IMG/VR virus record: IMGVR_UViG_3300048837_000795
Span: 1-64,000 of that record
Source of the DNA: a virus
Direction: 5' to 3' (one strand)
Length of the DNA: 64,000 bases
Below are positions 4,950 through 44,343 of this stretch, piece by piece. The position numbers were made by a program, and so were the translations under genes. Numbering within the stretch: the stretch's first letter is position 1; each line of letters begins with the position of its first letter. The notes under the pieces were generated by a model. It did no database searches. It saw only the letters and a list, made by a program, of their open reading frames with translations, and had not been told where the DNA came from.

Positions 4950-5107
4950 ACCGCGCTCCCTCCATCCTGGCATACTTGCGCGCCGGGCCACAGCTGCGAA
5001 TACAATTCCTGCCTGCGCTGGATCTCCGCGGCAAGCTGGCGCTCAGCCGGCCAGTCACCGCGCAGAATTGCTAAACAGCGCTCGATTTCCAGCCGGGTGT
5101 CAGTCAT
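4946..5107 (-). CDS. Small hypothetical protein, 53 aa
   Basis: The start at 5107 follows GAGG with 8-base spacing and overlaps the end of the helicase-loader gene. The protein is helical and charged (LEIERCLAILRGDW, AAEIQRRQELYSQL). It may be a small accessory to the replication pair, by position only. Confidence 0.6.
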   Translation of the reverse strand: MTDTRLEIERCLAILRGDWPAERQLAAEIQRRQELYSQLWPGAQVCQDGGSAV

Positions 5108-6056
5108 TGTAAAGGCCTCGCTGAGCGCGGGCGCCCAAAATCTCGCGCACGTCGCAGCCCTCGACTTCAACCGGCACCCCGCCCGAAATGCGAGAGGCCA
5201 AATAGGCCATATCCTCGGGCAGCGAGTCGGGGTTGTTTTTCATGGCCAGCACGGTCAGCAATCCGCTCGATTCGTAGCGGGTATCCAGCAGGCGGTGCAT
5301 TGTCTGCATCACCCACGGCGTGTGGGCAATCTGGTCAAGCTCATCGATGGCCAGCACCGGGATCTGCCGCGTCTCGCGGATCGCCGCCTCGACCGCAATG
5401 CCGCCACGGTCATCGCCGAACATATCGCGGATCTCGGCGATCAGGTCGGAGGCGTTGACGTAGCGCGAGCGCACGCCAATCCCCCGAAAGCCGTTGACCA
5501 GGCTTTTGAGCAAATGGCTCTTTCCCCGGCCAGGCTGGCCCCAGAACGTGACGAAGCCCTCGGGCCGCTCATTCATACCCAGCATGTTGCGCGCAGCGCG
5601 CTGCGCGAGCTGCTTTTCCGCAAAATCGCCGGTCACACGGAACTGCTCCAGTGAGACAGACAAATCATCGCCTTTTAAACCGCAGTTTGCGCGGAGGTAA
5701 TCCTTCCACGCCTCACCGGTGCACCGCGGGCAGGGGCTGGAATGCGTCTCGCCAGTGTACCAGCCTGGGACGGGTGTCGGCAGCCACTTGACCTTACCGC
5801 CATTGGGTTGGGCGTAGGGGCCGGAGACGGACACAAAGACAAACATCAGCCGCGCCCCGCCGCAGTTACGGCAGAGATTGGCAACGGCATTATCAGGCGC
5901 GTCGACCAGCAGCTTTGTCGCCTTCGGGTTATCCAGCAGCGCAACCAGGTCAGCCGGCCATATTCTCCCGTCAGGGATAGGCCGCTCGGGCGGAAGCGAT
6001 TCTAATTCCGGCGCGTCTATCTGAATATCGCTGAGTATATTCTGAATAGTGGTCAT
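5100..6056 (-). CDS. DnaC-like replicative helicase loader (AAA+)
   Basis: The 318-residue AAA+ protein has Walker A FWGQPGRGKSH (about 172-182) and Walker B IPVLAIDELDQ. Two CxxC pairs (CRNCGG near 62 and CPRC near 109) form an N-terminal zinc-ribbon-like module. This matches DnaC/DnaI-type loaders, which deliver the host replicative helicase to the phage origin. Its start overlaps the end of the initiator gene. No replicative helicase or polymerase is in the window, so the phage either borrows the host's or encodes them elsewhere. Confidence 0.85.
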   Translation of the reverse strand: MTTIQNILSDIQIDAPELESLPPERPIPDGRIWPADLVALLDNPKATKLLVDAPDNAVANLCRNCGGARLMFVFVSVSGPYAQPNGGKVKWLPTPVPGWYTGETHSSPCPRCTGEAWKDYLRANCGLKGDDLSVSLEQFRVTGDFAEKQLAQRAARNMLGMNERPEGFVTFWGQPGRGKSHLLKSLVNGFRGIGVRSRYVNASDLIAEIRDMFGDDRGGIAVEAAIRETRQIPVLAIDELDQIAHTPWVMQTMHRLLDTRYESSGLLTVLAMKNNPDSLPEDMAYLASRISGGVPVEVEGCDVREILGARAQRGLYND

Positions 6057-7144
6057 GCTTTCACCCCTTTCCCGCGCAGGTAAATCTGATAATCGTTCTC
6101 AGTCACCGTCTCGCCGAATAAGTCCAGGTTCTTACGCTGGAAAACCTCGAAAGAGTCCACGTCAGTGAACGCCGGCTTACTGGCGCGCAGCTCCGCAGCC
6201 TTAGCGGTCACATAGTACGTCAGCGACCCGGGCCGGCCTGGCATAAACCGTTTGTCAATCTGCTGGCCTTTCCAATCCTCGTGGTATGCCCGTAAAGCAT
6301 TTAGGCCGAATTCGCCGCAAGCCTCACGCAGATCGCGGGCCTCGTTGATCCATAGGCCATGCTGCCCGGCCTTTTTTCCAGCCTTTGCCGGCGGAACAAG
6401 TTTCCACAAACGGCAGACCTCCCGAATGATCTCGCGGGTATCTTCCGGATAAGAGGAAAAATCGATCTCCCCTTTCCGCGCCTCGAACTTCTGCAAGGCT
6501 GCCAACGCGCCGGCGTTTTTGACCGTTCCGTTTCCGTTGGAGGCAGCGGGCGCGTCAGCGCCCAAATCTTTGTTAGTCTCTGAAGTACCCTCTGTAGGAA
6601 TAGTCTCTGTTAATGGTTCTCGCCGTTTGGCGAGAAGGTTTTCGCCGTTTGGCAATTCCCTTTTCGCCGTTTGGCGAGAACCACCGTTTTCGCCGTTTGG
6701 CGAAAAGGGAATTTTGGCATTCGCGAGCTTCGCTTCCGGGGTGTATGGATTGATAAATGGTTTAGCCGCCCACTCATTCCACAAAGCCAAAAAGCGATCT
6801 TCGACCAGCCGCAGGTGCAAGGTTGGGTCGCGATTGAACTGGAAGAGTTTCTTTTCGATCAGCCCGGTTTTTACCAAAATCGCCAGGATCCGGTCTGATT
6901 GATCAGGGGTAATCCTGACCCGCTCATACCATTCGTAACGGCGGGCAGCGATCCAGAACTTACCCTCGTGTTCCACGCGCAGCTTTGAGCCGCCCTCTTT
7001 GGTTGGGAGATACCAATAGACAATCTCGCTCAACACCAGGCCGGCCAGTACATCCCCGCCGGCCATATCCACGTAGATCTTTTTGAAATCAATCGTGTCG
7101 CGGGAAGCGCGCTCCCACTGGAAGAACCGATCCATCGATGACAT
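6053..7144 (-). CDS. Replication initiator / replisome organizer with origin iterons inside the gene
   Basis: The 363-residue protein has an N-terminal winged-helix-like domain (YERVRITPDQSDRILAILV, then TGLIEKKLF), a low-complexity linker encoded by the iteron array, and a C-terminal helical region. It sits directly before a DnaC-like loader, as lambda O sits before P. The linker (around residues 145-180) is translated from four palindromic repeats at 6617-6706. NLDLFGE near the C terminus resembles a sliding-clamp-binding pentapeptide. The start at 7144 (ATG, preceded by GGGGGA) overlaps the upstream stop as TGATG. The family is inferred from domains and context. Confidence 0.75.
   Translation of the reverse strand: MSSMDRFFQWERASRDTIDFKKIYVDMAGGDVLAGLVLSEIVYWYLPTKEGGSKLRVEHEGKFWIAARRYEWYERVRITPDQSDRILAILVKTGLIEKKLFQFNRDPTLHLRLVEDRFLALWNEWAAKPFINPYTPEAKLANAKIPFSPNGENGGSRQTAKRELPNGENLLAKRREPLTETIPTEGTSETNKDLGADAPAASNGNGTVKNAGALAALQKFEARKGEIDFSSYPEDTREIIREVCRLWKLVPPAKAGKKAGQHGLWINEARDLREACGEFGLNALRAYHEDWKGQQIDKRFMPGRPGSLTYYVTAKAAELRASKPAFTDVDSFEVFQRKNLDLFGETVTENDYQIYLRGKGVKA
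6617..6706. repeat. Four palindromic iterons inside the initiator gene: candidate replication origin
   Basis: Copies lie at 6617-6636, 6639-6655, 6661-6680 and 6687-6706. All share CGCCGTTTGGC. The first is the perfect palindrome TTCTCGCC-GTTT-GGCGAGAA. Start-to-start spacing is 22, 22 and 26 bp, about two helical turns. Iterons within an initiator gene are the arrangement known from lambdoid origins. Confidence 0.8.
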
Positions 7145-7497
7145 CACTCAGAGTCCCCCTCGGCACTCGATTCGGCCTCTTCCTGGCCTTCCACGCTCCG
7201 GATAGAGCCGGTGAAAGACGGCACCGCCTCGACCTCGACGAAAACGGTATAGATCCGGTTCGTGCGCGGGTCGCTGACGGTAATCGTCATAGAATTTGGA
7301 TAATCAAAGTCACCGAAACGATCTTCGAGGTATTCTTCAGCGGCCTTCTCCGGACTATCCGCGTAAACCGGTACAAGATCTTCCGGGTCATAATCTTCAG
7401 GCCCGCAGAGATACATCGGCGGGCATTTGTGCCCGTATAGAAAAGTTCTTTCTTTGCATGTCGGGCATTCGCCCCAGCTGTTCGCCCAGTCGCTCAT
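7144..7497 (-). CDS. Small zinc-ribbon protein, 117 aa
   Basis: The start at 7497 follows GAGGGGAGCGTGGCT. The N terminus has a possible zinc site (CPTCKER, then HKCPP and a further Cys). An acidic middle and a Glu/Ser-rich tail follow. It is the first gene of the leftward replication operon, behind a motif B element at 7539-7570. Function is unknown. Confidence 0.65.
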   Translation of the reverse strand: MSDWANSWGECPTCKERTFLYGHKCPPMYLCGPEDYDPEDLVPVYADSPEKAAEEYLEDRFGDFDYPNSMTITVSDPRTNRIYTVFVEVEAVPSFTGSIRSVEGQEEAESSAEGDSE

Positions 7498-10336: not shown

Positions 10337-10834
10337 ATGACTATTCAAATTACCGAACTTGCACCCACGCTCGAACGCGTAGCTTATAAATTCACCAGCA
10401 CCGACGAAGATGCCGCCGACTTCCTGCAGGACGCCATGCTGGGCCTGGTAGAATTTACCCAGTCAGACCCGAACGCGCTGAGTAATTCCAGAACCTACCT
10501 GGTCAACCGCGGCAAATGGGCCGGTCAGCAGGCCGCCGATAAACACCGCACAATGGAGAACACGCGGTCGACCAGCCTGGACGGCCCCGGCGTAACCTTC
10601 GCCGAGCTGCTGCCCGCCGGTACCCTCGACCCGCAGGAAGCCGCCGAGCAGGCCGAAACGATCGAGGAGCTGCTTTCGATGACCGACGATATCCCCGACG
10701 GTCCGAAAATGGTCAAGCTGATTTATCTCGGTTATTCCGAGAAAGAGATCGCCGAGACCCTGCACGTCTCCGCCGCGGCCATCAGCCAGCGCAAACATAA
10801 GTTGATCGCGCGCTGGCGCAATCTGCAAATCTAA
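10337..10834 (+). CDS. Sigma-70 family factor (ECF-like size), 165 aa
   Basis: It has a region-2-like helix set (DAADFLQDAMLGLVEF and following) and a region-4 helix-turn-helix near the C terminus (GYSEKEIAETLHVSAAAISQ). The linker is short, as in group IV sigma factors. It follows RBS AGGGGGACACG and is the main product of the rightward early promoter. It is a strong candidate to read motif B or A promoters downstream. A terminator follows. Confidence 0.8.
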   Translation: MTIQITELAPTLERVAYKFTSTDEDAADFLQDAMLGLVEFTQSDPNALSNSRTYLVNRGKWAGQQAADKHRTMENTRSTSLDGPGVTFAELLPAGTLDPQEAAEQAETIEELLSMTDDIPDGPKMVKLIYLGYSEKEIAETLHVSAAAISQRKHKLIARWRNLQI

Positions 10835-12257: not shown

Positions 12258-12455
12258 ATGCCCCCAAAAATCAAACCTCAGACAAAAGCCGTCGTGATGA
12301 TCACCCCCACCGGCACCTGCATTGTACGCACCGATGACGGCCGTCACGTCGCGCTGGCCCCTCAGCTGGCCGTAGACGTGGCGCGGACCATCCTCGATGA
12401 GGGCAAGCCCGCCATTTCACCGCCGCCGGCAAAAAGCGCCGGTTGGGTGCAGTGA
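12258..12455 (+). CDS. Small hypothetical protein, 65 aa
   Basis: ATG follows AGGAGTAGATCT. The product is a compact beta-type peptide (KAVVMITPTGTCIVRTDDGR) with a Pro-rich tail. It is the first gene behind motif B copy 3, 22 bp before the second sigma factor. Function is unknown. Confidence 0.6.
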   Translation: MPPKIKPQTKAVVMITPTGTCIVRTDDGRHVALAPQLAVDVARTILDEGKPAISPPPAKSAGWVQ

Positions 12456-12477
12456 CCCAGTTACCCAGGGGGACCGC

Positions 12478-13245
12478 ATGATACATGACCTGCTGACGGC
12501 TGAGGAAGAGATCGACCTGATCACCTGCGCGCGCGCCGGCGATACTGCCGCGCTGGAGTCGCTGGTCGAGCATAACCAGCGCCTGGTCTTCTCCATCGCC
12601 AACCGCTATTTTCATTCGGGTTTCGGCGGTGACCAGGACCTGGAAGACCTGGCGCAGTGGGGCAATATGGGCATGATCCATGCGATACGCAAATTTGACG
12701 CCCGCCGAGGCACGCGCTTCTCCACTTACGCAGTGCATTGGATCGACGCTTATATCCGGCGCTACGCCGGCGAACAAGCCAGGACCATCAGCATGACCCA
12801 GCGCGATACTGAGCGCCTGCGCAAGATCCGGCGCAGCCGTTCAGCGCTCACCATCCGGCTGCAGCGGGCGCCAACCGCCGCGGAGATCGCCGCCGACTGC
12901 GATATGGACGCCGCGTACGTCGCCGACTGGCTGCCGGCCCTGACCGCGCACGTGCGCCTCGACCGCGAGGTTGACCACGCTGCCGGCAATGATGACGCGC
13001 TGCACGAGATTATCAGCGCTGCCGACGATGACCATGACCCCGAGCGGGCCCTGGAACGCAAAGAGCTGGCCGAGCTGTTGGGCCGGCTCGACCCGCGCTG
13101 CCGGGAAGTAATCAACCGCCGCTTTTTCAACGAGCCGCCCGAGTCGCGCGCTCACATTGCCCAGCAGCTGGGCGTGTCGGTCGACTGCGTGCGCCGGCTC
13201 GAACAGCAGGCGCTGGAGATTATCCGGCCGCATTTTGGGGCTTAA
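12478..13245 (+). CDS. Sigma-70 family factor with regions 2, 3 and 4, 255 aa
   Basis: The start at 12478 follows AGGGGGACCGC; an upstream frame to 12397 lacks an RBS. Region 2 is clear (LVEHNQRLVFSIANRYFHSG, FSTYAVHWIDAYIRRYAGE). Region 3 is RAPTAAEIAADCDMDAAYVA. Region 4 is SRAHIAQQLGVSVDCVRRLE. It looks like a group-3 sigma factor lacking region 1. A second phage sigma factor implies a timed switch of promoter class. Its last codons lie inside motif B copy 4. Confidence 0.9.
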   Translation: MIHDLLTAEEEIDLITCARAGDTAALESLVEHNQRLVFSIANRYFHSGFGGDQDLEDLAQWGNMGMIHAIRKFDARRGTRFSTYAVHWIDAYIRRYAGEQARTISMTQRDTERLRKIRRSRSALTIRLQRAPTAAEIAADCDMDAAYVADWLPALTAHVRLDREVDHAAGNDDALHEIISAADDDHDPERALERKELAELLGRLDPRCREVINRRFFNEPPESRAHIAQQLGVSVDCVRRLEQQALEIIRPHFGA

Positions 13246-13288: not shown

Positions 13289-13930
13289 ATGAAAATCAGA
13301 ATACACCGCATTATTCCCCAGTCCAGAGTCGACGGCCCAGGCGTGCGCACAGTTGTGTTTTTGCAGGGGTGCAGCCTGGCATGCAAGGGCTGCCAGAACC
13401 GCCATATCTGGCCGGCTGACGGCGGGCATGAGACCAACACCGCCGACCTGGCGCAGGCCCTGACCATCCTTTCCGGGCGCATCGGCAATGTCACCATCAG
13501 CGGCGGCGAGCCCTTCCAGCAGCCGGCAGCGCTGGCCGCGCTGATCACTGATCTGCGCAAGCACGGCACGGTCAAGCACCTGATCGTTTACACCGGCTAC
13601 ACCTGGGAAGAGCTGCACAGCGCCACCCACCCGGCCCGGCCATACCTGAGCGAGATTTTGCAGGGCGTGGACGTGCTGGTCGACGGGCGCTTTATCGCAA
13701 AGCTCGACGATCCGATGATCACCTACCGCGGCAGCCGCAATCAGCGGCCCATCGACGTGGCTGAGAGCCTGACCGTAGATGAGCTGGTGGTGCTGGACTG
13801 GGATCACCCCGAGGTGATCATCGGCGATGACGGCGAGCTGCTGCTGCCAATCGGACTCGCGGACGTATTTGCCAGCATGGGGGCTGTCAGGCAAAGTCGC
13901 ATGTGCGGCGAGACAGTCGATGTCAAATGA
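13289..13930 (+). CDS. nrdG: NrdG-like anaerobic ribonucleotide reductase activase (radical SAM)
   Basis: The CxxxCxxC iron-sulfur motif (GCSLACKGCQN, Cys 28, 32 and 35) and GGEP motif (ISGGEPFQQP) define a radical-SAM activase. Opening SRVDGPGVRTVVFLQGC matches NrdG. In anaerobes it makes the glycyl radical of class III ribonucleotide reductase. No nrdD is in the window, so it either serves a host or distal phage NrdD or has another glycyl-radical or peptide target. Start follows AGGAG. Confidence 0.85.
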   Translation: MKIRIHRIIPQSRVDGPGVRTVVFLQGCSLACKGCQNRHIWPADGGHETNTADLAQALTILSGRIGNVTISGGEPFQQPAALAALITDLRKHGTVKHLIVYTGYTWEELHSATHPARPYLSEILQGVDVLVDGRFIAKLDDPMITYRGSRNQRPIDVAESLTVDELVVLDWDHPEVIIGDDGELLLPIGLADVFASMGAVRQSRMCGETVDVK

Positions 13931-14130
13931 GCATATCCGAGGAGCGGGTTGCCCGGTTCGACGCGTACCGCGAAACGCTGAGCAAGGATGAGCGCGCGGA
14001 GCTGGATCGCATGGTCGTGGAGTGCTGCGACACGTTCCGCCGGCCCGGCGGCCAGTTTGGCGAGCGCATGGCCAAAGAATTGATTATTGCGCTGGTGGAC
14101 TTCAACCCCCGCCGGCAGGTAGTGAGGTGA
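13927..14130 (+). CDS. Small hypothetical protein, 67 aa
   Basis: ATG overlaps the nrdG stop as ATGA. The product is helical and charged (EERVARFDAYRETLSKDERA, MAKELIIALVDFNPRRQ). It is translationally coupled to nrdG and to the DUF5131 gene. Function is unknown. Confidence 0.6.
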   Translation: MSISEERVARFDAYRETLSKDERAELDRMVVECCDTFRRPGGQFGERMAKELIIALVDFNPRRQVVR

Positions 14131-14133
14131 GAG

Positions 14134-14940
14134 ATGGGCGAAACAACTGGTATTAGCTGGTGTGATCATACGTTCAACCCCTGGATAGGCTGCACGAAGG
14201 TGTCAGCCGGTTGTGATCTATGTTATGCGGAAACGCAGAACAACCGTTTTCAGTGGAATCCTGCCGGATGGGGCAAGGGCGCGCCGCGCAAACTTACGGC
14301 AGACGCCAATTGGATAAAGCCGCTGGCATGGGCAAAGCAGGCGATTACCGACGGCGTCTTGCGCCGCGTATTTGCCGGCAGTTTATGCGATCCGTTTGAT
14401 GACGAGGTTCCAAGCGCCTGGCGCGATCGCTACTTCACCTTGATCGATGACGTTGGAGAATACTGCCGACACTTCCGCACCGTTCCGGGGTCCGGTTTGG
14501 AATTTATGATCCTGACCAAACGAATCAAGGGCGCGTGGAAAAAACTTCCTGGCGAGTGGGTCGAGTACCTTCCCGAGTATGTACGGCTGGGCGTCACTGC
14601 CGAAAACCAACCAAATGCCGACCGCCGAATCCATGAGCTTTTCAGTACCTGGCGCGGCAAGAACTTTATCAGTGTCGAGCCAATGCTGGGCCCGCTCGAC
14701 TTAACCCATGATCTCGACGGTTACAACCCTTATGGCGCGAGTCTTGATTGGGTCATTGTTGGAGGAGAGTCTGGCGCCGGCTGTCGGCCCATGAACATAG
14801 ACTGGGCACGAAGCGTGCGCGATCAATGCAAAGAAGCTGGCGTTCCCTTTTTCTTCAAACAGATCGGTGGGCACCCGAATAAGCAGCACGACCCCGCCAG
14901 ATGGCCCGCCGACTTGCGTATCCAGGAGTTTCCAAAATGA
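14134..14940 (+). CDS. Phage Gp37/Gp68-family protein (DUF5131), radical-SAM-like
   Basis: The 268-residue protein opens with ISWCDHTFNPWIGCTKVS and a CX6CX2C cluster (GCTKVSAGCDLCYAE, Cys 20, 27, 30). It continues with FAGSLCDPFDD, EFMILTKR, ISVEPMLGPLD and WVIVGGESGAGCRPM, all hallmarks of the Gp37/Gp68 family common in phages. A metal- or FeS-dependent reaction is likely but the substrate is unknown. It lies two genes after nrdG, another FeS enzyme. Confidence 0.85.
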   Translation: MGETTGISWCDHTFNPWIGCTKVSAGCDLCYAETQNNRFQWNPAGWGKGAPRKLTADANWIKPLAWAKQAITDGVLRRVFAGSLCDPFDDEVPSAWRDRYFTLIDDVGEYCRHFRTVPGSGLEFMILTKRIKGAWKKLPGEWVEYLPEYVRLGVTAENQPNADRRIHELFSTWRGKNFISVEPMLGPLDLTHDLDGYNPYGASLDWVIVGGESGAGCRPMNIDWARSVRDQCKEAGVPFFFKQIGGHPNKQHDPARWPADLRIQEFPK

Positions 14941-21394: not shown

Positions 21395-23833
21395 ATGATG
21401 ACCTACGAAGAATATCTAGCAAGCAAAGTCACCAAAACGGAAATATCAGGATTTGAAGTGTCACTAGAGGCGCTCCATCCGATCCTGAAAGGTTGGCAGA
21501 AAGTCATTGTCCAGCATGCGCTCAAGATGGGTAAATACGCGCTGTTGGAAAATACCGGACTGGGTAAGACCTTGCAATATGGCGAATGGGCTAAGCACGT
21601 GGCTGCGCACACCGGTATGAAAGTGCTGATTGTTACCCCGCTTTCCGTGGCTGATCAAACGATACGCGAGCTCGATAAGAAGCTCCAGGTGGCCGCGCGC
21701 TACTGCCGGTCACAGGAAGAGGCCGAGTCGTGCGAAGAGCAGATCATCGTTACCAATTACGACATGCTCAAGGTGTTTGACCCGGAATACTTTTCCGGCC
21801 TGGTCCTGGATGAGTCAAGCATTCTTAAAAGCTACATGGGCAAGCTCAAGCAGTACATCCTGGAAACCTTCGCCAATACGCCCTATAAGCTGGCCTGCAC
21901 CGCTACCGCCGCGCCAAACGATCACATGGAATACGGCAATCATGCCGAATTTATCGATGCGATGAGCTCGACCGATGTTTTGCAGCGCTTTTTCATCAAC
22001 GACACGATGGAGGCCGGCGGCTATCGCTTGCTGGGATGGGCCGACACGACCAAGCCAATGGGGTTTTGGACGTGGCTTTCTTCATGGGCTGCCTGCATTT
22101 CTAAGCCGTCCGATATTCCAGGCTTTACCGATGATGACTTTGTTTTGCCTAACCTGGTAATCCACGAGGAAGTCGTTTCGATCGACCATACCCGCGCCTT
22201 CGATCAAGGGCAGCTCGTGATCTCGGGCAAGCTCAGCGCCACGGGCGTATGGAAGGAAAAGGCCCTTACGCTGGAAGATCGTTGCATCCGCGCGCGTGAG
22301 GTATACGACCGCATCCAGACGCATGAGCCGGTCGTTGTCTGGTGCCAGACGAACGATGAAGCTGATCGACTGGTGCAGCTCTTCCCTGATTTTGTCGAGG
22401 TGCGCGGGGAAGAAAAGCGCGAGGTAAAGCTGGCCAAGCTGCGCGATTTTGGAGACGGCAAATATCCCGGAATTATTACCAAAGCCGAGATCGCCGGCTA
22501 CGGCATGAACTGGCAGCACGCCGGCAATCATATCTTTGTTGGGGTAACGTACTCATTCGAGGATTTTTACCAGTCGATTCGCCGCTCTTACCGCTATATG
22601 CGCGAGGGCGATGTGCATGCCTGGCTGATCTATGCGGAAACCGAGGGCAATGTGCGCAAGGCCCTGGAGATGAAACAAAAAGAGTATGACCGCATGCAAT
22701 CCCGCATGAATGAGGCCATGCGCATTTATGGACTCGACCGGGCAGTAGACCGCAAGCAGGCCAATATTGAGATCGACGAAGATGTGGCCAGCGGGGAGGG
22801 ATGGACGAATTATTTAGGTGACTGCGTTCTGACCGCCCGTAAACATATTGCCGCCGATAGTGTTGACTTCTCTATCTTCTCGCCGCCATTCGCTGAGCTT
22901 TACCGCTACACCGACAAAGTCGCCGATATGGGCAACGTAGCCAATATGGACGAATTCTTTGAGGGGTTTGATTATATGATCCACGAGCTGTACCGGGTGA
23001 TCAAACCGGGCCGGCTGGTCGCTGTGCACTGCAAAGACCTTCCCCTGTACATGAACCGTGACGCGGCCGCCGGGCTGCGCGACTTTCCCGGTGAGATCGT
23101 CAATCATTTCCAGAAATACCAGTACGATCGTGACCATATCCCCAGCGAAGACCCGCAGTACAAAAACCGGCGCTGGATCCTGCACTCAAAGGTCACGATC
23201 TGGAAAGATCCGGTCATCGAAATGCAGCGCACGAAAAACCACGGCCTGTTGTGGAAAAACTTCATGGAGCGCGGAGAGGTCGTGCGCCAGGGCATGGCAG
23301 ATTATCTGTATGTTTTCCGCAAGTGGGTGGATATGGACGAAATGCCAGACAAGCAAATTCAGCGCGTTATGAAAGCGCCTGGCTTTCACGATGGCGAAGA
23401 TGAGCATGTTTTTATCGGCGAAAACCCGCCCTTGCGTTTCGATGGTGACCGTGACTACTCGATCCAGGTATGGCAGAAATACGCTTCGCCGGTCTGGGAT
23501 GATATCCGTCAGACCAATGTGCTCAACGGCCGCATTGCCCGCGAGGACCGCGACCAGAAACATATCTGCCCGCTTCAGCTCGACGTGATCGACCGCGGGA
23601 TCGACCTGTGGACAAACCCCGGCGATCTGGTATATGACCCTTATAACGGGGTTGGGTCCACCACCAGCAGGGCTGTGCAAATGCACCGGCGCGCGGTTGG
23701 GAGTGAGCTCAAGAAAACCTATTGGAAGCTGGGCAACAAACACAATAAACAGGCCGAGCAGGAAGCGCGAAACGTGGACCTCTTTGCCTACGCCGCGTCG
23801 CTGCCCATCGAAGAACAGGCCGCCGCAGATTAG
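21395..23833 (+). CDS. Fusion of SNF2/DEAD-type helicase and DNA methyltransferase, 812 aa
   Basis: The N-terminal half is a superfamily-2 ATPase: ENTGLGKTLQYGEW (Walker A, about 52-60), LDESS (motif II, about 138-142), TATAAP (motif III) and a helicase C domain (VVVWCQTNDEADRLVQLF, FYQSIRRSYRYMREG). From about residue 470 follows a DNA methyltransferase with catalytic SPPF (about 495-498) and AdoMet loop YDPYNGVGSTTSRAV (about 746). SPPF suggests N4-cytosine methylation, or N6-adenine. The fusion resembles type III/ISP-like restriction enzymes without a nuclease. NVDLF near the C terminus is clamp-motif-like. RBS is AGAGG behind motif B. Confidence 0.85.
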   Translation: MMTYEEYLASKVTKTEISGFEVSLEALHPILKGWQKVIVQHALKMGKYALLENTGLGKTLQYGEWAKHVAAHTGMKVLIVTPLSVADQTIRELDKKLQVAARYCRSQEEAESCEEQIIVTNYDMLKVFDPEYFSGLVLDESSILKSYMGKLKQYILETFANTPYKLACTATAAPNDHMEYGNHAEFIDAMSSTDVLQRFFINDTMEAGGYRLLGWADTTKPMGFWTWLSSWAACISKPSDIPGFTDDDFVLPNLVIHEEVVSIDHTRAFDQGQLVISGKLSATGVWKEKALTLEDRCIRAREVYDRIQTHEPVVVWCQTNDEADRLVQLFPDFVEVRGEEKREVKLAKLRDFGDGKYPGIITKAEIAGYGMNWQHAGNHIFVGVTYSFEDFYQSIRRSYRYMREGDVHAWLIYAETEGNVRKALEMKQKEYDRMQSRMNEAMRIYGLDRAVDRKQANIEIDEDVASGEGWTNYLGDCVLTARKHIAADSVDFSIFSPPFAELYRYTDKVADMGNVANMDEFFEGFDYMIHELYRVIKPGRLVAVHCKDLPLYMNRDAAAGLRDFPGEIVNHFQKYQYDRDHIPSEDPQYKNRRWILHSKVTIWKDPVIEMQRTKNHGLLWKNFMERGEVVRQGMADYLYVFRKWVDMDEMPDKQIQRVMKAPGFHDGEDEHVFIGENPPLRFDGDRDYSIQVWQKYASPVWDDIRQTNVLNGRIAREDRDQKHICPLQLDVIDRGIDLWTNPGDLVYDPYNGVGSTTSRAVQMHRRAVGSELKKTYWKLGNKHNKQAEQEARNVDLFAYAASLPIEEQAAAD

Positions 23834-31391: not shown

Positions 31392-32936
31392 ATGAACCAG
31401 ATCCAAGCCATTGAAATTTTAGAGCGCTATATCCGCGCTCGTTATCCGATCATCGCCACACTCAGCCACGAAGAGACCCGCGTCATGGCGGCCATCCGCG
31501 CCGCCGCCAACAGCCGCAAGATGGAGCTCGTCGAATGGTCCATCACCACCGGCCTGTTGGGGGAGGGCTTTGACGCTTCCGGCACGCGCGACGTGGTCGC
31601 CGCGTTCGAGGCTATGCTGGGCGCATCCACTGACCGCTCGATCCTGTTTGTCATGCGCGACCTGCACGGCGCGCTGGGCAACGCGGACCGTGGGCATGAT
31701 CCGCTGATCACGCGCTACCTGCGCGACCTGGCTGAGAAATTCGCCGCCTGCCGCAATACTCTGGTGCTGCTGTCGCCGGCCTTCTCGATCCCCTCGGACC
31801 TCGACAAAACCATCGTACTGATCGACTGGCCGCTGCCCGACTCGGAAGAGCTGGGCGCGGTGCTCACAAAGGCCGAGATCGACCTGCCGGCGTCTATCCC
31901 CTACACCCTCAACGGCAACCGCGACCGGGTTATCCAGGCCATGCGCGGCCTGACGCTGTTCGAGGCCGAGTCGGTGCTCTCTTCCGGCATTGTCGCCACG
32001 CGGCAGTTGGGCGATAACATCATCCCCTTTATCGTCAAGGAAAAGGCGCAGATCATCCGCAAGGCCGGCGTGTTGGAATACTACGACACCGACGTGACCA
32101 TGAACCAGGTGGGCGGGCTGCAATATCTCAAGGAATATTCCGCGATCAAGCGCAAAGCCTTCTCACGCGAGGCTGCCGCCGCGGGTGTGGATGCGCCAAA
32201 GGGCTTGCTGCTGGTCGGCATCCCCGGCACCGGTAAATCCCTGGCCGCCAAAGCCATTGCCGGCGGGCAAATGCCCCTGCTGCGCATGGACGTGGGCGCG
32301 CTGATGGGTGGGCTGGTCGGGCAGAGTGAGGGCAATATGCGCGCCGCGCTCAAGGTTGCAGAGGCCGTTGCCCCGTGTGCGCTCTGGTTGGATGAAATCG
32401 AGAAAGCAATCTCGGGCGGCGGTGGGGAGCTGGACGGCGGCACGAGTGCGCGCGTCTTTGGCACGCTGCTGACCTGGATGCAGGAGACCACGGCGCCGGT
32501 TTACGTAATAGCCACCGCAAACGATATCCGCTCCCTGCGCCCCGAGCTGATCCGGCGCTTTGACGATATGATGTGGGTCGACCTGCCCAACCAGGCGGCG
32601 CGCGTCGAGATCCTGACGGTACACCTGTCCAAACGCCGGCAGGACGCTTCCCGCATCGACCTAGAGTCGGCCGCCCGGGCCACCTGGGGTTTCTCGGGCG
32701 CGGAGATCGAAAAGACGGTCAAGAGCGCGTTGGAACGGGCATTCTCACAGGGCCAGGAGCTCAGCACGGATTACCTGCTCAAGGCTGCCTCGAAAATTGT
32801 CCCCATCGCCGTGACGATGGAAAACAAGATCAAAGACCTGCGCGCCCAGGCCCAGCACGCGCTGCAGGCCGGCGATCCGCTGGAGACAAAGCCGGCAGCC
32901 GTTGCAAGCCGGGCGGTCGACCTGAGCGATTTATAA
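31392..32936 (+). CDS. Ycf46-like AAA+ ATPase, 514 aa
   Basis: An N-terminal domain with Ycf46-like features (ILERYIRARYPIIATLSHEE, WSITTGLLGEGF) is followed by one classical AAA+ module: LVGIPGTGKSLAAKAI (Walker A, about 275), CALWLDEIEKA (Walker B), VIATANDI (sensor 1) and LRPELIRRFDD (Arg finger). Ycf46 proteins are known from chloroplasts and cyanobacteria and their substrates are unsettled. It has its own A+B promoter pair, and DUF1257 and DUF2997 genes follow, so the set likely works as one system. Confidence 0.8.
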   Translation: MNQIQAIEILERYIRARYPIIATLSHEETRVMAAIRAAANSRKMELVEWSITTGLLGEGFDASGTRDVVAAFEAMLGASTDRSILFVMRDLHGALGNADRGHDPLITRYLRDLAEKFAACRNTLVLLSPAFSIPSDLDKTIVLIDWPLPDSEELGAVLTKAEIDLPASIPYTLNGNRDRVIQAMRGLTLFEAESVLSSGIVATRQLGDNIIPFIVKEKAQIIRKAGVLEYYDTDVTMNQVGGLQYLKEYSAIKRKAFSREAAAAGVDAPKGLLLVGIPGTGKSLAAKAIAGGQMPLLRMDVGALMGGLVGQSEGNMRAALKVAEAVAPCALWLDEIEKAISGGGGELDGGTSARVFGTLLTWMQETTAPVYVIATANDIRSLRPELIRRFDDMMWVDLPNQAARVEILTVHLSKRRQDASRIDLESAARATWGFSGAEIEKTVKSALERAFSQGQELSTDYLLKAASKIVPIAVTMENKIKDLRAQAQHALQAGDPLETKPAAVASRAVDLSDL

Positions 32937-41958: not shown

Positions 41959-44343
41959 TTATGCCTTTACTGCCCTGGCCACGACCTGCTCGATGCGTGC
42001 CTCAAGCACGGAGAAATCGAGGGCGCTGTTGATGTTATTGCCGCCAAAGTTGAAGGCGTTGTTGATGGTGGTCGAGCGCGTCATCGCCGGGGTGGAAGGC
42101 ATGGAGCTGAATGAGCCTGCACTGCCGCGCACACCCGCGCCCTGACTGCCCGCGCCTGGGGATTTGGCATTGTGTACCACCACGCCGTCTACCAGGTAGG
42201 TATGGTCGGGATGGTCGACTTCGATGTTATAGATATCAAACTCGCCCGGGTAGGCTTCTACAAACGCGACAAAGGCCGGCGTTTTGGAAACCAGCATCTC
42301 GCCGGGCGCAAGATCGCATGCTTCGACCCAGCCGCGGGCAAATGTTTTAAATCTGTGATTGGGTGAGCAGTGATACTGCCGTCCGTCATCGATATACACG
42401 CTGACCAGGTCGCTGCGCACCGAATGGATGGTCTTTGCCACCAGCGCCGCGACTTGCTCGCCGTCATCGCGCATCAACAAAACTTTGTCGCCCACGCGCA
42501 GATCAGCAATCATGGTCATGCCGCCCGGCACATTGACCGGGGTTGACGCCACAAAGCAGGTGCCAGGCGGGTCAGATGCCGGGCCTGAGCGCGCGCCGTT
42601 GATCAGCCGCACCAAATTGTTAAACCACTTGGTCAGGTCCTGGAGTTTGCCCGACGCCCACTCGAAGGCCCGCCCTAAAACGTCGCGGATGGTTTTGGCG
42701 GCGTCCTCGATCAGCGGGCCAAATGTCTGCGAGAGCCAGTCGCCAAACCCGGTCAGCAGCGGGAACAGGGTCTCGCTGATAAACTTCCACACTTCGGTCA
42801 GCGCGGGTAACAGCGTCTCGGTCCAGACCTTACCCAATTCCTCCAGCGCCAGGCCAAACACCGCGCCGAGGAAATCGGTAAACGACTGGAAAAACGGGAA
42901 CAGCACCGTGGTCATCCATGTCCACACACGCTGGATTGCCGGCAGCAGCGTATCTTCCCAGAAGGCCCTGAGTGACTCGATAGCCAGCGGAATATTGGTC
43001 GCCAGCCAGTCCCACATGGTTTGGAAGAGCGGGAAGAGGTTGGCCTGGATCCACTCCCACACCGACATAATCGCCGGCAGTAATGTCTCTTCCCAGAAGC
43101 CTTTCAAAATCTCGATGGCCGCCGGCACGTTGACCGCCAGCCAGTTCCACAGCTGCTGTAAGGCCGGCCTTACCGTACCCTCCCAGAACTGGGTCAGGGC
43201 GTCGCGCATGCCCAAAAAGTTGTTTTCCCAGGCGTAGGCCAGCGCGGCCACGACCGCGGCGACCAGCAGCAGCACGCCGATCAGCGGCGCGGCAGCGGTG
43301 ACCATCGCTACGATCGCCGGGATGGCCGCGGCGATGGTGGTATAGGCCCATACTGCCACAGCCACGGCAATGGCCGCCAGCACCCCCACAATAATAGGCT
43401 TATTGGCCATCAGCCAGTTGAATCCGGCCTGGAGGATATTAAAGGCGATGGGCATGGCGGTAATAATCACGTTGGCAATGCGCGAGATAAGGCCGGCGAT
43501 TTGCGGCAATATCTCGCGCACCTTCGGCAGCGCTTTGCGGGCCAGCTCCATAAAACGTTTGGCCAGGTCCATCACTGCCGGCATAAGTTCTTTGCCAAGC
43601 TGCACAAACAGGCCCTGCCCGGCCATCTTCAAAAACTCAAGCTGTTTCTGCAGCTCGATCGACCCGTCAACAGTATCCCCGCTCAGCGACAGGCCCAATT
43701 CTTTGGCCATCGCGTCAGCCTCGGCAAAGCCGTCGGTGGTCAGCGCGCCTAACGTGTCGGTCAAATCTTTGCCCGACTTGCCAAACAGCTCAACCATCAG
43801 CTTGGTCTTTTCCAGCCCGTCCGGCATGAGCGCCAGTTTATCGGCCACGGCGGTGATGATATCGGTCGACGGTAGTATGTTGCCGTTCGCGTCGCGGAAA
43901 GCAATGCCCAGCTTATCCATTACCGCCCCGGTTGCGCCCAGCTCGCCCTTGCTGTCGACCAGCCCGCGGGTAAGGAAGGCCATCTGCCCGGTAATGCCCT
44001 CGACATTGCCGCCCACGCGCTGGATTGCCACGGCCAGCGCCGACGACTCTTCGGCCGACGTGCCCAGCACATCGCCAATGCTGTCGACCGTGCCGGCCCA
44101 GCCCATCATGGCCGGGATCGCCGCGAGCGCCGCGCCGGCCAGCGTGCCGACCGCCGCGGCGGCAGCGCCTAACGCCCCCATCACCACCGCCCCACCCACG
44201 CGGGACAAACCTTCGGTCATACGCGCGCCCGCGCTCTCAGTCTCATCCTTGCCGGTCTTTGTCGCGGCTAAGTATTCCCGCATACCAGCCAGGAAGTCCG
44301 CGTTTTTGAAAATAGCCTCAAGGCCGATCTGCTCTAAACCCAT
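41959..44343 (-). CDS. Tail tape measure protein with internal Hint domain, 794 aa
   Basis: The N-terminal third is Ala/Gly-rich helical (LSRVGGAVVMGALGAAAAAV). Central hydrophobic helices (IIVGVLAAIAVAVAVWAYTT, LIGVLLLVAAVVAALAYAW) are typical of tape measures. Trp-rich repeats (TLLPAIQRVWTWMTTVLFPF and relatives) follow. From Cys596 to Asn725 lies a Hint/intein-like domain. A short Ser/Asn-rich tail ends the protein. It sets tail length and aids DNA ejection. Start follows AAAGGACGGTAATC. Confidence 0.85.
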   Translation of the reverse strand: MGLEQIGLEAIFKNADFLAGMREYLAATKTGKDETESAGARMTEGLSRVGGAVVMGALGAAAAAVGTLAGAALAAIPAMMGWAGTVDSIGDVLGTSAEESSALAVAIQRVGGNVEGITGQMAFLTRGLVDSKGELGATGAVMDKLGIAFRDANGNILPSTDIITAVADKLALMPDGLEKTKLMVELFGKSGKDLTDTLGALTTDGFAEADAMAKELGLSLSGDTVDGSIELQKQLEFLKMAGQGLFVQLGKELMPAVMDLAKRFMELARKALPKVREILPQIAGLISRIANVIITAMPIAFNILQAGFNWLMANKPIIVGVLAAIAVAVAVWAYTTIAAAIPAIVAMVTAAAPLIGVLLLVAAVVAALAYAWENNFLGMRDALTQFWEGTVRPALQQLWNWLAVNVPAAIEILKGFWEETLLPAIMSVWEWIQANLFPLFQTMWDWLATNIPLAIESLRAFWEDTLLPAIQRVWTWMTTVLFPFFQSFTDFLGAVFGLALEELGKVWTETLLPALTEVWKFISETLFPLLTGFGDWLSQTFGPLIEDAAKTIRDVLGRAFEWASGKLQDLTKWFNNLVRLINGARSGPASDPPGTCFVASTPVNVPGGMTMIADLRVGDKVLLMRDDGEQVAALVAKTIHSVRSDLVSVYIDDGRQYHCSPNHRFKTFARGWVEACDLAPGEMLVSKTPAFVAFVEAYPGEFDIYNIEVDHPDHTYLVDGVVVHNAKSPGAGSQGAGVRGSAGSFSSMPSTPAMTRSTTINNAFNFGGNNINSALDFSVLEARIEQVVARAVKA
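42169..42558 (-). other. Hint (intein-like / BIL) domain inside the tape measure protein
   Basis: 130 residues. They begin with CFVASTPVNVPGGM (N1 Cys), carry HCSPNHRF (TxxH-like block B), and end YLVDGVVVHN (His-Asn terminus). The residue after Asn is Ala, not Ser, Thr or Cys, so normal splicing is unlikely. Bacterial intein-like domains of this type cleave or splice weakly. No homing endonuclease is inserted. Confidence 0.75.

What the first reader, a model, noticed from the sequence alone, without database searches (positions are those of the whole stretch)
6617..6706. Origin-like iterons embedded in the initiator gene
Four copies of CGCCGTTTGGC at 22, 22 and 26 bp, one a perfect 20-bp palindrome, encode a low-complexity linker, as in lambda O.
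Basis: partly seen in the sequence, partly recalled or inferred. Interest (0 to 1): 0.7.

Follow-up and report, generated by a model that had tools for sequence, protein, structure and literature searches.

The report
Phage replication origin inside initiator gene
A phage's DNA-replication start site is hidden inside the gene for the protein that most likely recognises it, as in phage lambda, and comparison with about 180 related or similar genes shows a two-part layout (variable protein-binding repeats followed by a nearly constant, easily melted repeat) shared by phages of many bacterial groups.

Summary
The repeats are real: four identical 12-mers (TCGCCGTTTGGC, + strand) at 6620, 6642, 6664 and 6690, found nowhere else in the 65-kb virus record. 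They lie in three codon phases of an initiator gene (6053-7147, minus strand), so the DNA is repeated rather than the peptide. The gene has a winged-helix N-terminus, a disordered linker holding the repeats, and a DnaC-like loader next door. In 50 of 58 dereplicated homologues the linker carries a DNA repeat beyond synonymous-codon expectation, usually exactly 23 bp apart, with diverged sequence; only 13 of 196 neighbouring ORFs do. It is near-constant from cyanobacterial to Bacillus and Acinetobacter phages, and its codon choice goes against host composition. Best reading: a lambda-O-type intragenic origin, iterons plus unwinding element. The window copy is a new member of a known kind. The cross-phylum constancy of the second element was not found described in the open library searched. 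Origin activity itself was not tested.

The parts
6053..7147 (-). Replication initiator gene (364 aa from GTG; start not certain, ATG codons follow closely)
   Evidence: phrog_6493 DnaD-like helicase loader E=3.6e-7; 36 of 39 family members match phrog_9773 'replication initiation O-like' and 33 match phrog_428 'replication initiation protein'
6746..7147 (-). N-terminal winged-helix domain (about residues 1-134), presumed iteron-binding domain
   Evidence: AlphaFold pLDDT mostly above 90; best fold matches are plasmid initiator N-terminal domains 4pta/4pql/4pt7 (Z 8.2-8.3) and a Rep-DNA complex 5kbj (Z 7.8); Z near 8 is modest
6687..6706 (-). Iteron 1 in coding order: TTTTCGCC-AAAC-GGCGAAAA
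6661..6680 (-). Iteron 2 in coding order: TTCTCGCC-AAAC-GGCGAAAA
6639..6658 (-). Iteron 3 in coding order: GAATTGCC-AAAC-GGCGAAAA, 5' arm degenerate
6617..6636 (-). Iteron 4 in coding order: TTCTCGCC-AAAC-GGCGAGAA, next to the unwinding element
6600..6610 (-). Unwinding-element repeat, copy 1: ACAGAGACTAT (1 mismatch to ACAGAGANTAC)
6585..6595 (-). Unwinding-element repeat, copy 2: ACAGAGGGTAC (1 mismatch)
6573..6583 (-). Unwinding-element repeat, copy 3, degenerate: TCAGAGACTAA
   Evidence: read from the sequence printed
6565..6614 (-). Predicted DNA unwinding element: least stable 50 bp of the gene
   Evidence: nearest-neighbour energy -1.21 kcal/mol per bp against a gene mean of -1.48; a 50-bp stretch shifted by 1 bp lies at the 99.4th percentile of the window
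6071..6514 (-). C-terminal helical domain (residues about 212-359), low model confidence
5100..6056 (-). DnaC-like AAA+ helicase loader, overlapping the end of the initiator gene
   Evidence: phrog_50 E=9e-20; Pfam AAA E=1e-8 and Bac_DnaA E=1e-5

Best explanation
The stretch 6565-6706 is a theta-type phage replication origin embedded in its own initiator gene. Likely mechanism: (1) the winged-helix N-terminus of the 364-aa initiator binds the four interrupted-palindrome iterons, probably as dimers [inferred from lambda O and plasmid Rep structures]; (2) the protein-DNA complex strains and opens the adjacent weak stretch carrying the ACAGAGANTAC repeats [stability computed here; opening inferred]; (3) one exposed strand is held, and the neighbouring DnaC-like AAA+ protein loads the replicative helicase there [inferred from gene order and lambda O/P and SPP1 gp38/gp39]. 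The iteron sequence is replicon-specific and diverges between phages. The 3' element stays nearly constant at the DNA level, which suggests that it meets a conserved partner or has a fixed physical role. The coding linker is carried along: disordered, free in sequence, so it tolerates iterons in any frame.
For: Iterons real, unique in the record and in three codon phases. Linker DNA repeat in 50/58 dereplicated homologues beyond synonymous shuffles, 36 of them at exactly 23 bp; controls 13/196 with no 22-24 bp mode. ACAGAGANTAC exact in 38/58 homologues (4.7 expected from synonymous shuffles), within 1 mismatch in 55/58 (23.9 expected). Codon choice in T-E-x-T: ACA 71/74 and GAG 69/74; GAG used 37:4 in A+T-rich genes against 243:568 elsewhere in them (Fisher p=6e-15); ACA/ACT used 32:8 in G+C-rich genes against 121:257 (p=8e-9). 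Element copies sometimes change codon phase, e.g. L053 phases 2,0,1. Unbiased scan for the element: 126 matches, all in the same frame of the longest ORF, 111/124 with an upstream 21-24 bp repeat; synonymous-codon control 8/63, random 10/570. Iterons plus element occur outside an initiator gene, frame broken, on plasmid pBSG3, 79% identical to phage PM1's initiator gene. The element is the least stable 50 bp of the gene. Neighbouring DnaC-like loader. Mapped lambda, P22 and phi80 origins have the same layout.
Against: No experiment: neither binding nor origin activity is shown for this phage. No close relative of this initiator was found by sequence in viral or genome collections, so conservation is judged at roughly 21-47% protein identity. 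The window's own element is a degenerate version (1 mismatch in two copies). Protein homology to lambda O is not detectable. Homologues are phylogenetically related and not independent, so p-values are indicative. Eight of 58 homologues show no significant repeat.
Confidence: 0.9

Rival explanations
1. The repeats are mainly an autoregulatory operator: the initiator binds its own gene to repress transcription through it, and replication starts elsewhere.
For: Iterons of plasmid replicons often also serve in autoregulation (general knowledge); the array lies inside the transcribed gene.
Against: An operator would not need a conserved, weakly paired, repeat-bearing element a few bp 3' of the array, yet it is present in 55/58 homologues within 1 mismatch. 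No second iteron array exists in the record. The plasmid pBSG3 copy is not in front of or inside an initiator gene.
Confidence: 0.06
2. The repeats encode a repetitive low-complexity linker peptide whose sequence matters; the DNA repetition is a by-product.
For: The stretch is coding and the linker is predicted disordered; the 3' element is usually in one frame and encodes T-E-x-T repeats.
Against: Copies lie in three codon phases and give different peptides; the modal spacing of 23 bp is not a codon multiple; synonymous shuffles do not reproduce the repeats or the element; codon choice at the element opposes genome composition.
Confidence: 0.02
3. The array is a mobile palindromic repeat (REP- or Rickettsia-palindrome-like) that invaded the gene.
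For: Short interrupted palindromes inside a coding gene in several frames.
Against: No other copy in the virus record. Homologues have arrays of different sequence at the same gene position and spacing. Three viral contigs with the same 11-mer repeated show no related initiator around it.
Confidence: 0.01
4. The phage carries the array but starts replication mainly by another route (recombination-dependent or host-origin), so this is a relic origin.
For: The window also has a Holliday-junction-resolvase-like gene; the third iteron and the 3' element are slightly degenerate.
Against: Four 12-mers are still identical, with intact initiator and adjacent loader genes.
Confidence: 0.05

Closest known systems
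Phage lambda ori within gene O (also Stx phages, P22 gene 18, phi80 gene 15)
   Same: Four (lambda, phi80) inverted-repeat iterons of about 19 bp, 20-24 bp apart, in mid-gene between DNA-binding and C-terminal parts; A+T-rich stretch directly 3'; loader or helicase gene next (PMC5043065, PMC7466680). The lambda and P22 stretch (ACAAAAGACAMTATNACAAAAGA) looks like a divergent form of the same repeat.
   Different: Initiator protein not detectably homologous to lambda O; iteron sequence unrelated; loader is DnaC-like AAA+ rather than lambda P.
SPP1 oriL within gene 38, with gp38 and gp39
   Same: Origin-binding protein gene that contains its own direct repeats plus an A+T-rich unwinding element; helicase loader gp39 (PMC6316719).
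   Different: SPP1 has a second origin, oriR; no second array here. SPP1 sequence was not in the collection, so the element could not be checked.
RepA_N / pLS32-type plasmid initiators
   Same: Iterons inside the rep gene serve as origin (PMC4490491); best fold matches of the N-terminal domain are plasmid initiator N-terminal domains (4pta, 4pql, 4pt7, 5kbj), which I recall as RepA_N-type.
   Different: pLS32-type origins are described as lacking an A+T-rich region (PMC4490491), present here; no Pfam RepA_N match.
DnaA-trios and DnaD recognition element of Bacillus subtilis oriC
   Same: A repeated single-strand recognition element next to double-strand binding sites that directs helicase loading (PMC10201434); this initiator is classed as DnaD-like by PHROGs.
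   Different: No DnaA box near the array; period about 12 bp and sequence ACAGAGANTAC differ from the trio and TnnT motifs; single-strand binding here is only a hypothesis.

Membership tests
Lambda-O-type intragenic phage origin | Tandem inverted-repeat iterons inside the initiator coding sequence | tested here: met
   Four copies, interrupted palindromes, 22/22/26 bp
Lambda-O-type intragenic phage origin | A+T-rich / low-stability stretch adjacent to the iterons | tested here: met
   Least stable 50 bp of the gene starts within about 5 bp of the array
Lambda-O-type intragenic phage origin | Helicase loader or helicase gene next to the initiator | tested here: met
   DnaC-like AAA+ gene overlaps the initiator's end
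Lambda O protein family | Sequence homology of the initiator to lambda O | tested here: not met
   hhalign of the 39-member profile against lambda O: probability 0.7%. Filed as the same type of origin, not as a member of the lambda O protein family
Lambda-O-type intragenic phage origin | Initiator binds the iterons and the fragment acts as an origin | not testable with these tools
   Needs footprinting and a replication assay
Phage DnaD-like / O-like initiator family (phrog_6493, phrog_9773, phrog_428) | Profile match of the N-terminal domain | tested here: met
   phrog_6493 E=3.6e-7 for the window protein; 36 of 39 aligned relatives match phrog_9773
Phage DnaD-like / O-like initiator family (phrog_6493, phrog_9773, phrog_428) | 22-24 bp DNA repeats in the linker followed by ACAGAGANTAC repeats | tested here: met
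   Window: array score p=0.005 and two element copies with 1 mismatch
RepA_N plasmid initiators | Pfam RepA_N domain match | tested here: not met
   No Pfam match for the window protein, none to RepA_N among 39 relatives
RepA_N plasmid initiators | Winged-helix N-terminal fold of the RepA_N type | tested here: inconclusive
   Top fold matches at Z 8.2-8.3, tied within 1 with other winged helices

The most novel reading that the evidence does not exclude
The ACAGAGANTAC repeat next to the iterons is a cross-phylum, sequence-specific origin element that a conserved partner (the initiator's C-terminal part, the helicase loader, host primase or DnaA/DnaD-type single-strand binding) reads as single-stranded DNA. 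It would be a phage counterpart of DnaA-trios and the DnaD recognition element, held nearly constant while iterons diverge, and portable enough to be carried without its initiator by plasmids such as pBSG3.
Probability: 0.45. Interest if true: 0.8.

Novelty: new member of a known kind. Interest (0 to 1): 0.58.

Why it matters
The window feature adds an uncultured phage, with no close relative found, to the lambda-type class of self-contained initiator-plus-origin genes. More generally, the two-part signature (23-bp repeats in several frames plus ACAGAGANTAC repeats) lets origins be read straight from sequence in uncultured phages and some plasmids, and marks a constant element whose partner can be tested directly. 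The stand-alone copy on a Bacillus plasmid hints at plasmids carrying phage origins as decoys or as amplification handles; ectopic lambda origins are known to block lambda (PMC4488673).

Tried and rejected
Close relatives by single-protein scans of viral and genome collections: none found; distant ones came through plasmid and phage tblastn and then an alignment-based search. A scan for the exact 11-mer repeated in viral contigs gave three unrelated places. GC skew: follows gene strand only. DnaA boxes: six matches in the window, none near the array. Promoter and terminator scan near the array: at chance level. Perfect-stem length as a statistic: not discriminating against synonymous shuffles. 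No solved structure is related by sequence; Foldseek gave only weak matches. SPP1 could not be checked because the record is not in the collection. TP901-1 rep showed neither clear repeats nor the element by the same tests, so the signature is not universal. No paper in the held library prints the element in a phage-origin context or describes it under the searched terms; most subscription literature, including reviews of phage replication modules, could not be searched. Search for matching iterons of pBSG3 in viral contigs: none exact.

Full report
What is in the window. The window is 64,000 of 65,423 bases of an IMG/VR virus record. It has a terminase, a phage minor-tail (tape-measure type) protein, sigma factors and a tyrosine integrase, so it is a tailed phage or prophage. 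The flagged stretch lies in a gene on the minus strand, 6053-7147, 364 aa. Its N-terminal part matches the PHROG DnaD-like helicase loader family (E=3.6e-7), and the next gene, overlapping its end, is a DnaC-like AAA+ loader. AlphaFold gives a confident N-terminal winged helix (residues about 1-134), a disordered linker (147-218) and a poorly modelled helical C-terminus. The best solved-structure matches are N-terminal domains of plasmid replication initiators (4pta, 4pql, 4pt7; 5kbj is a Rep-DNA complex), but at Z about 8 these are tied with other winged helices.

The observation. The four 12-mers are exact, 22, 22 and 26 bp apart, and unique in the record. They fall in codon phases 2, 1, 2 and 0, so they encode different peptides. 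In 20,000 synonymous shuffles no 10-mer reached four copies in the linker. The claimed perfect 20-bp palindrome is really two perfect 8-bp arms around a 4-nt centre; two of the four copies have perfect arms.

The refutation test. Homologues were found in Stenotrophomonas phages, plasmids of Brevibacillus, Halobacillus and Nostoc, 56 viral contigs and 16 bacterial contigs. After removal of near-duplicates, 58 genes were tested: best direct self-match at offsets 17-30 against 200 synonymous-codon shuffles of the same gene. Fifty exceeded the shuffles (p<0.05); 36 of these had period exactly 23, five 22 and four 24. Among 196 other ORFs of the same loci 13 passed, close to the 5% expected, with no 22-24 mode. 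Repeats at a 23-bp period shift frame at each copy, so they are not peptide repeats. The repeat sequences differ between phages (TTGGNCCC..GGGNCCAA in Stenotrophomonas phages, GTTGAATCAAC in Halobacillus, CCCAAAGGG types in many), while position and spacing stay.

A second element. Printing the linkers showed a near-constant stretch just 3' of the repeats: TTAACAGAGACTACTACAGAGATTAC and variants. ACAGAGANTAC is exact in 38 of 58 genes (4.7 expected from synonymous shuffles) and within one mismatch in 55 (23.9 expected); in 46 genes a copy begins between 7 bp before and 54 bp after the end of the detected repeat array, most often 0-15 bp after it. It is mostly in one codon phase (107 of 116), encoding T-E-x-T, so peptide selection had to be tested. 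Codon choice settles it: T is ACA in 71 of 74, E is GAG in 69 of 74. In A+T-rich genes GAG:GAA is 37:4 in the element against 243:568 elsewhere (p=6e-15); in G+C-rich genes ACA/ACT:ACC/ACG is 32:8 against 121:257 (p=8e-9). Some genes also carry copies in other phases. The window's element (6573-6610) has two one-mismatch copies and a third weaker one. Two of the three such matches in the whole record are these, and the stretch is the least stable 50 bp of the gene and in the top 1% of the window.

Unbiased scan. All 126 matches lie in the same frame of the longest ORF, and 111 of 124 with enough sequence have a 21-24 bp repeat in the 110 bp upstream. A control pattern for the same peptide with other codons gave 61 contigs in mixed frames; only 8 of 63 had an upstream repeat, all at multiples of three; random stretches gave 10 of 570. 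These contigs were not dereplicated in the counts. Among named phages the element is annotated as lying in replication initiation, O-like, DnaD or primosomal genes of Acinetobacter, Klebsiella, Staphylococcus, Bacillus, Burkholderia and Erwinia phages, among others.

An origin without its gene. Six small Bacillus plasmids carry the element at a place with no listed gene. In pBSG3, 700-860 is 79% identical over 123 bp to the linker of the Bacillus phage PM1 initiator gene. One-base indels break the frame, and no winged-helix initiator is encoded around it. Iterons and element are thus found as a DNA unit without the protein, in agreement with a DNA role.

Mechanism. Shown here: repeats, their phase independence, conservation of arrangement, the second element with DNA-level constraint, low stability, gene order. 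Inferred from lambda, Stx phages and SPP1 (PMC5043065, PMC7466680, PMC6316719): initiator dimers bind the iterons, neighbouring A+T-rich DNA opens, the initiator holds single-stranded DNA, and a loader brings the helicase. For lambda, two iterons plus the A+T-rich part are the minimum for unwinding (cited in PMC7466680). Why the element is so constant when iterons diverge is not explained by A+T richness alone; a shared single-strand reader, like DnaA-trios or the DnaD recognition element (PMC10201434), is the natural hypothesis and is untested.

Placing it. The layout is that of lambda ori, annotated also in P22 and phi80. The protein is not a detectable lambda O homologue and not a Pfam RepA_N protein. 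It belongs to a broad phage family of O-like/DnaD-like initiators. The window feature is therefore a new member of a known kind. TP901-1 rep does not show the signature, so it is widespread but not universal.

Noticed in passing
L210 (NC_014104, plasmid pBSG3) 700-860: Stand-alone phage-type origin (iterons plus ACAGAGATTAC repeats), 79% identical over 123 bp to the Bacillus phage PM1 initiator gene, on a small plasmid with a separate rep gene and MobV relaxase; frame broken and no phage initiator present. Five Bacillus velezensis plasmids of 8.4 kb carry the same match to the element.
   Followed up: partly
L209 1219-1262 and L215 2920-2956: The A+T-rich stretches of lambda and P22 origins contain ACAAAAGACAMTAT-type repeats that resemble a divergent form of the ACAGAGANTAC element.
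   Followed up: partly
41959-44343 (-): Phage minor-tail (tape-measure type) protein with a Hint/intein-like domain near residues 595-726, starting with Cys and ending His-Asn before an Ala; may be a bacterial intein-like domain rather than a splicing intein.
   Followed up: no
21395-23833 (+): One 812-aa ORF joins a DEAD/SNF2-type helicase part to an N4/N6 DNA methylase part.
   Followed up: no
10337-10834 (+) and 12397-13245 (+): Two sigma-70-like proteins in one phage: a region 2-3-4 sigma factor and a shorter region 2 protein.
   Followed up: no
13289-14940 (+): Radical-SAM activating-enzyme-like gene followed by a DUF5131 gene.
   Followed up: no
31392-32936 (+): AAA+ ATPase with AAA lid (514 aa) of a type unusual for a phage.
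   Followed up: no
L013 4411-4575 (Nostoc HK-01 plasmid): The Nostoc initiator linker has nine repeat copies, first at 16-bp and then at 23-bp spacing, a denser array than in other homologues.
   Followed up: no
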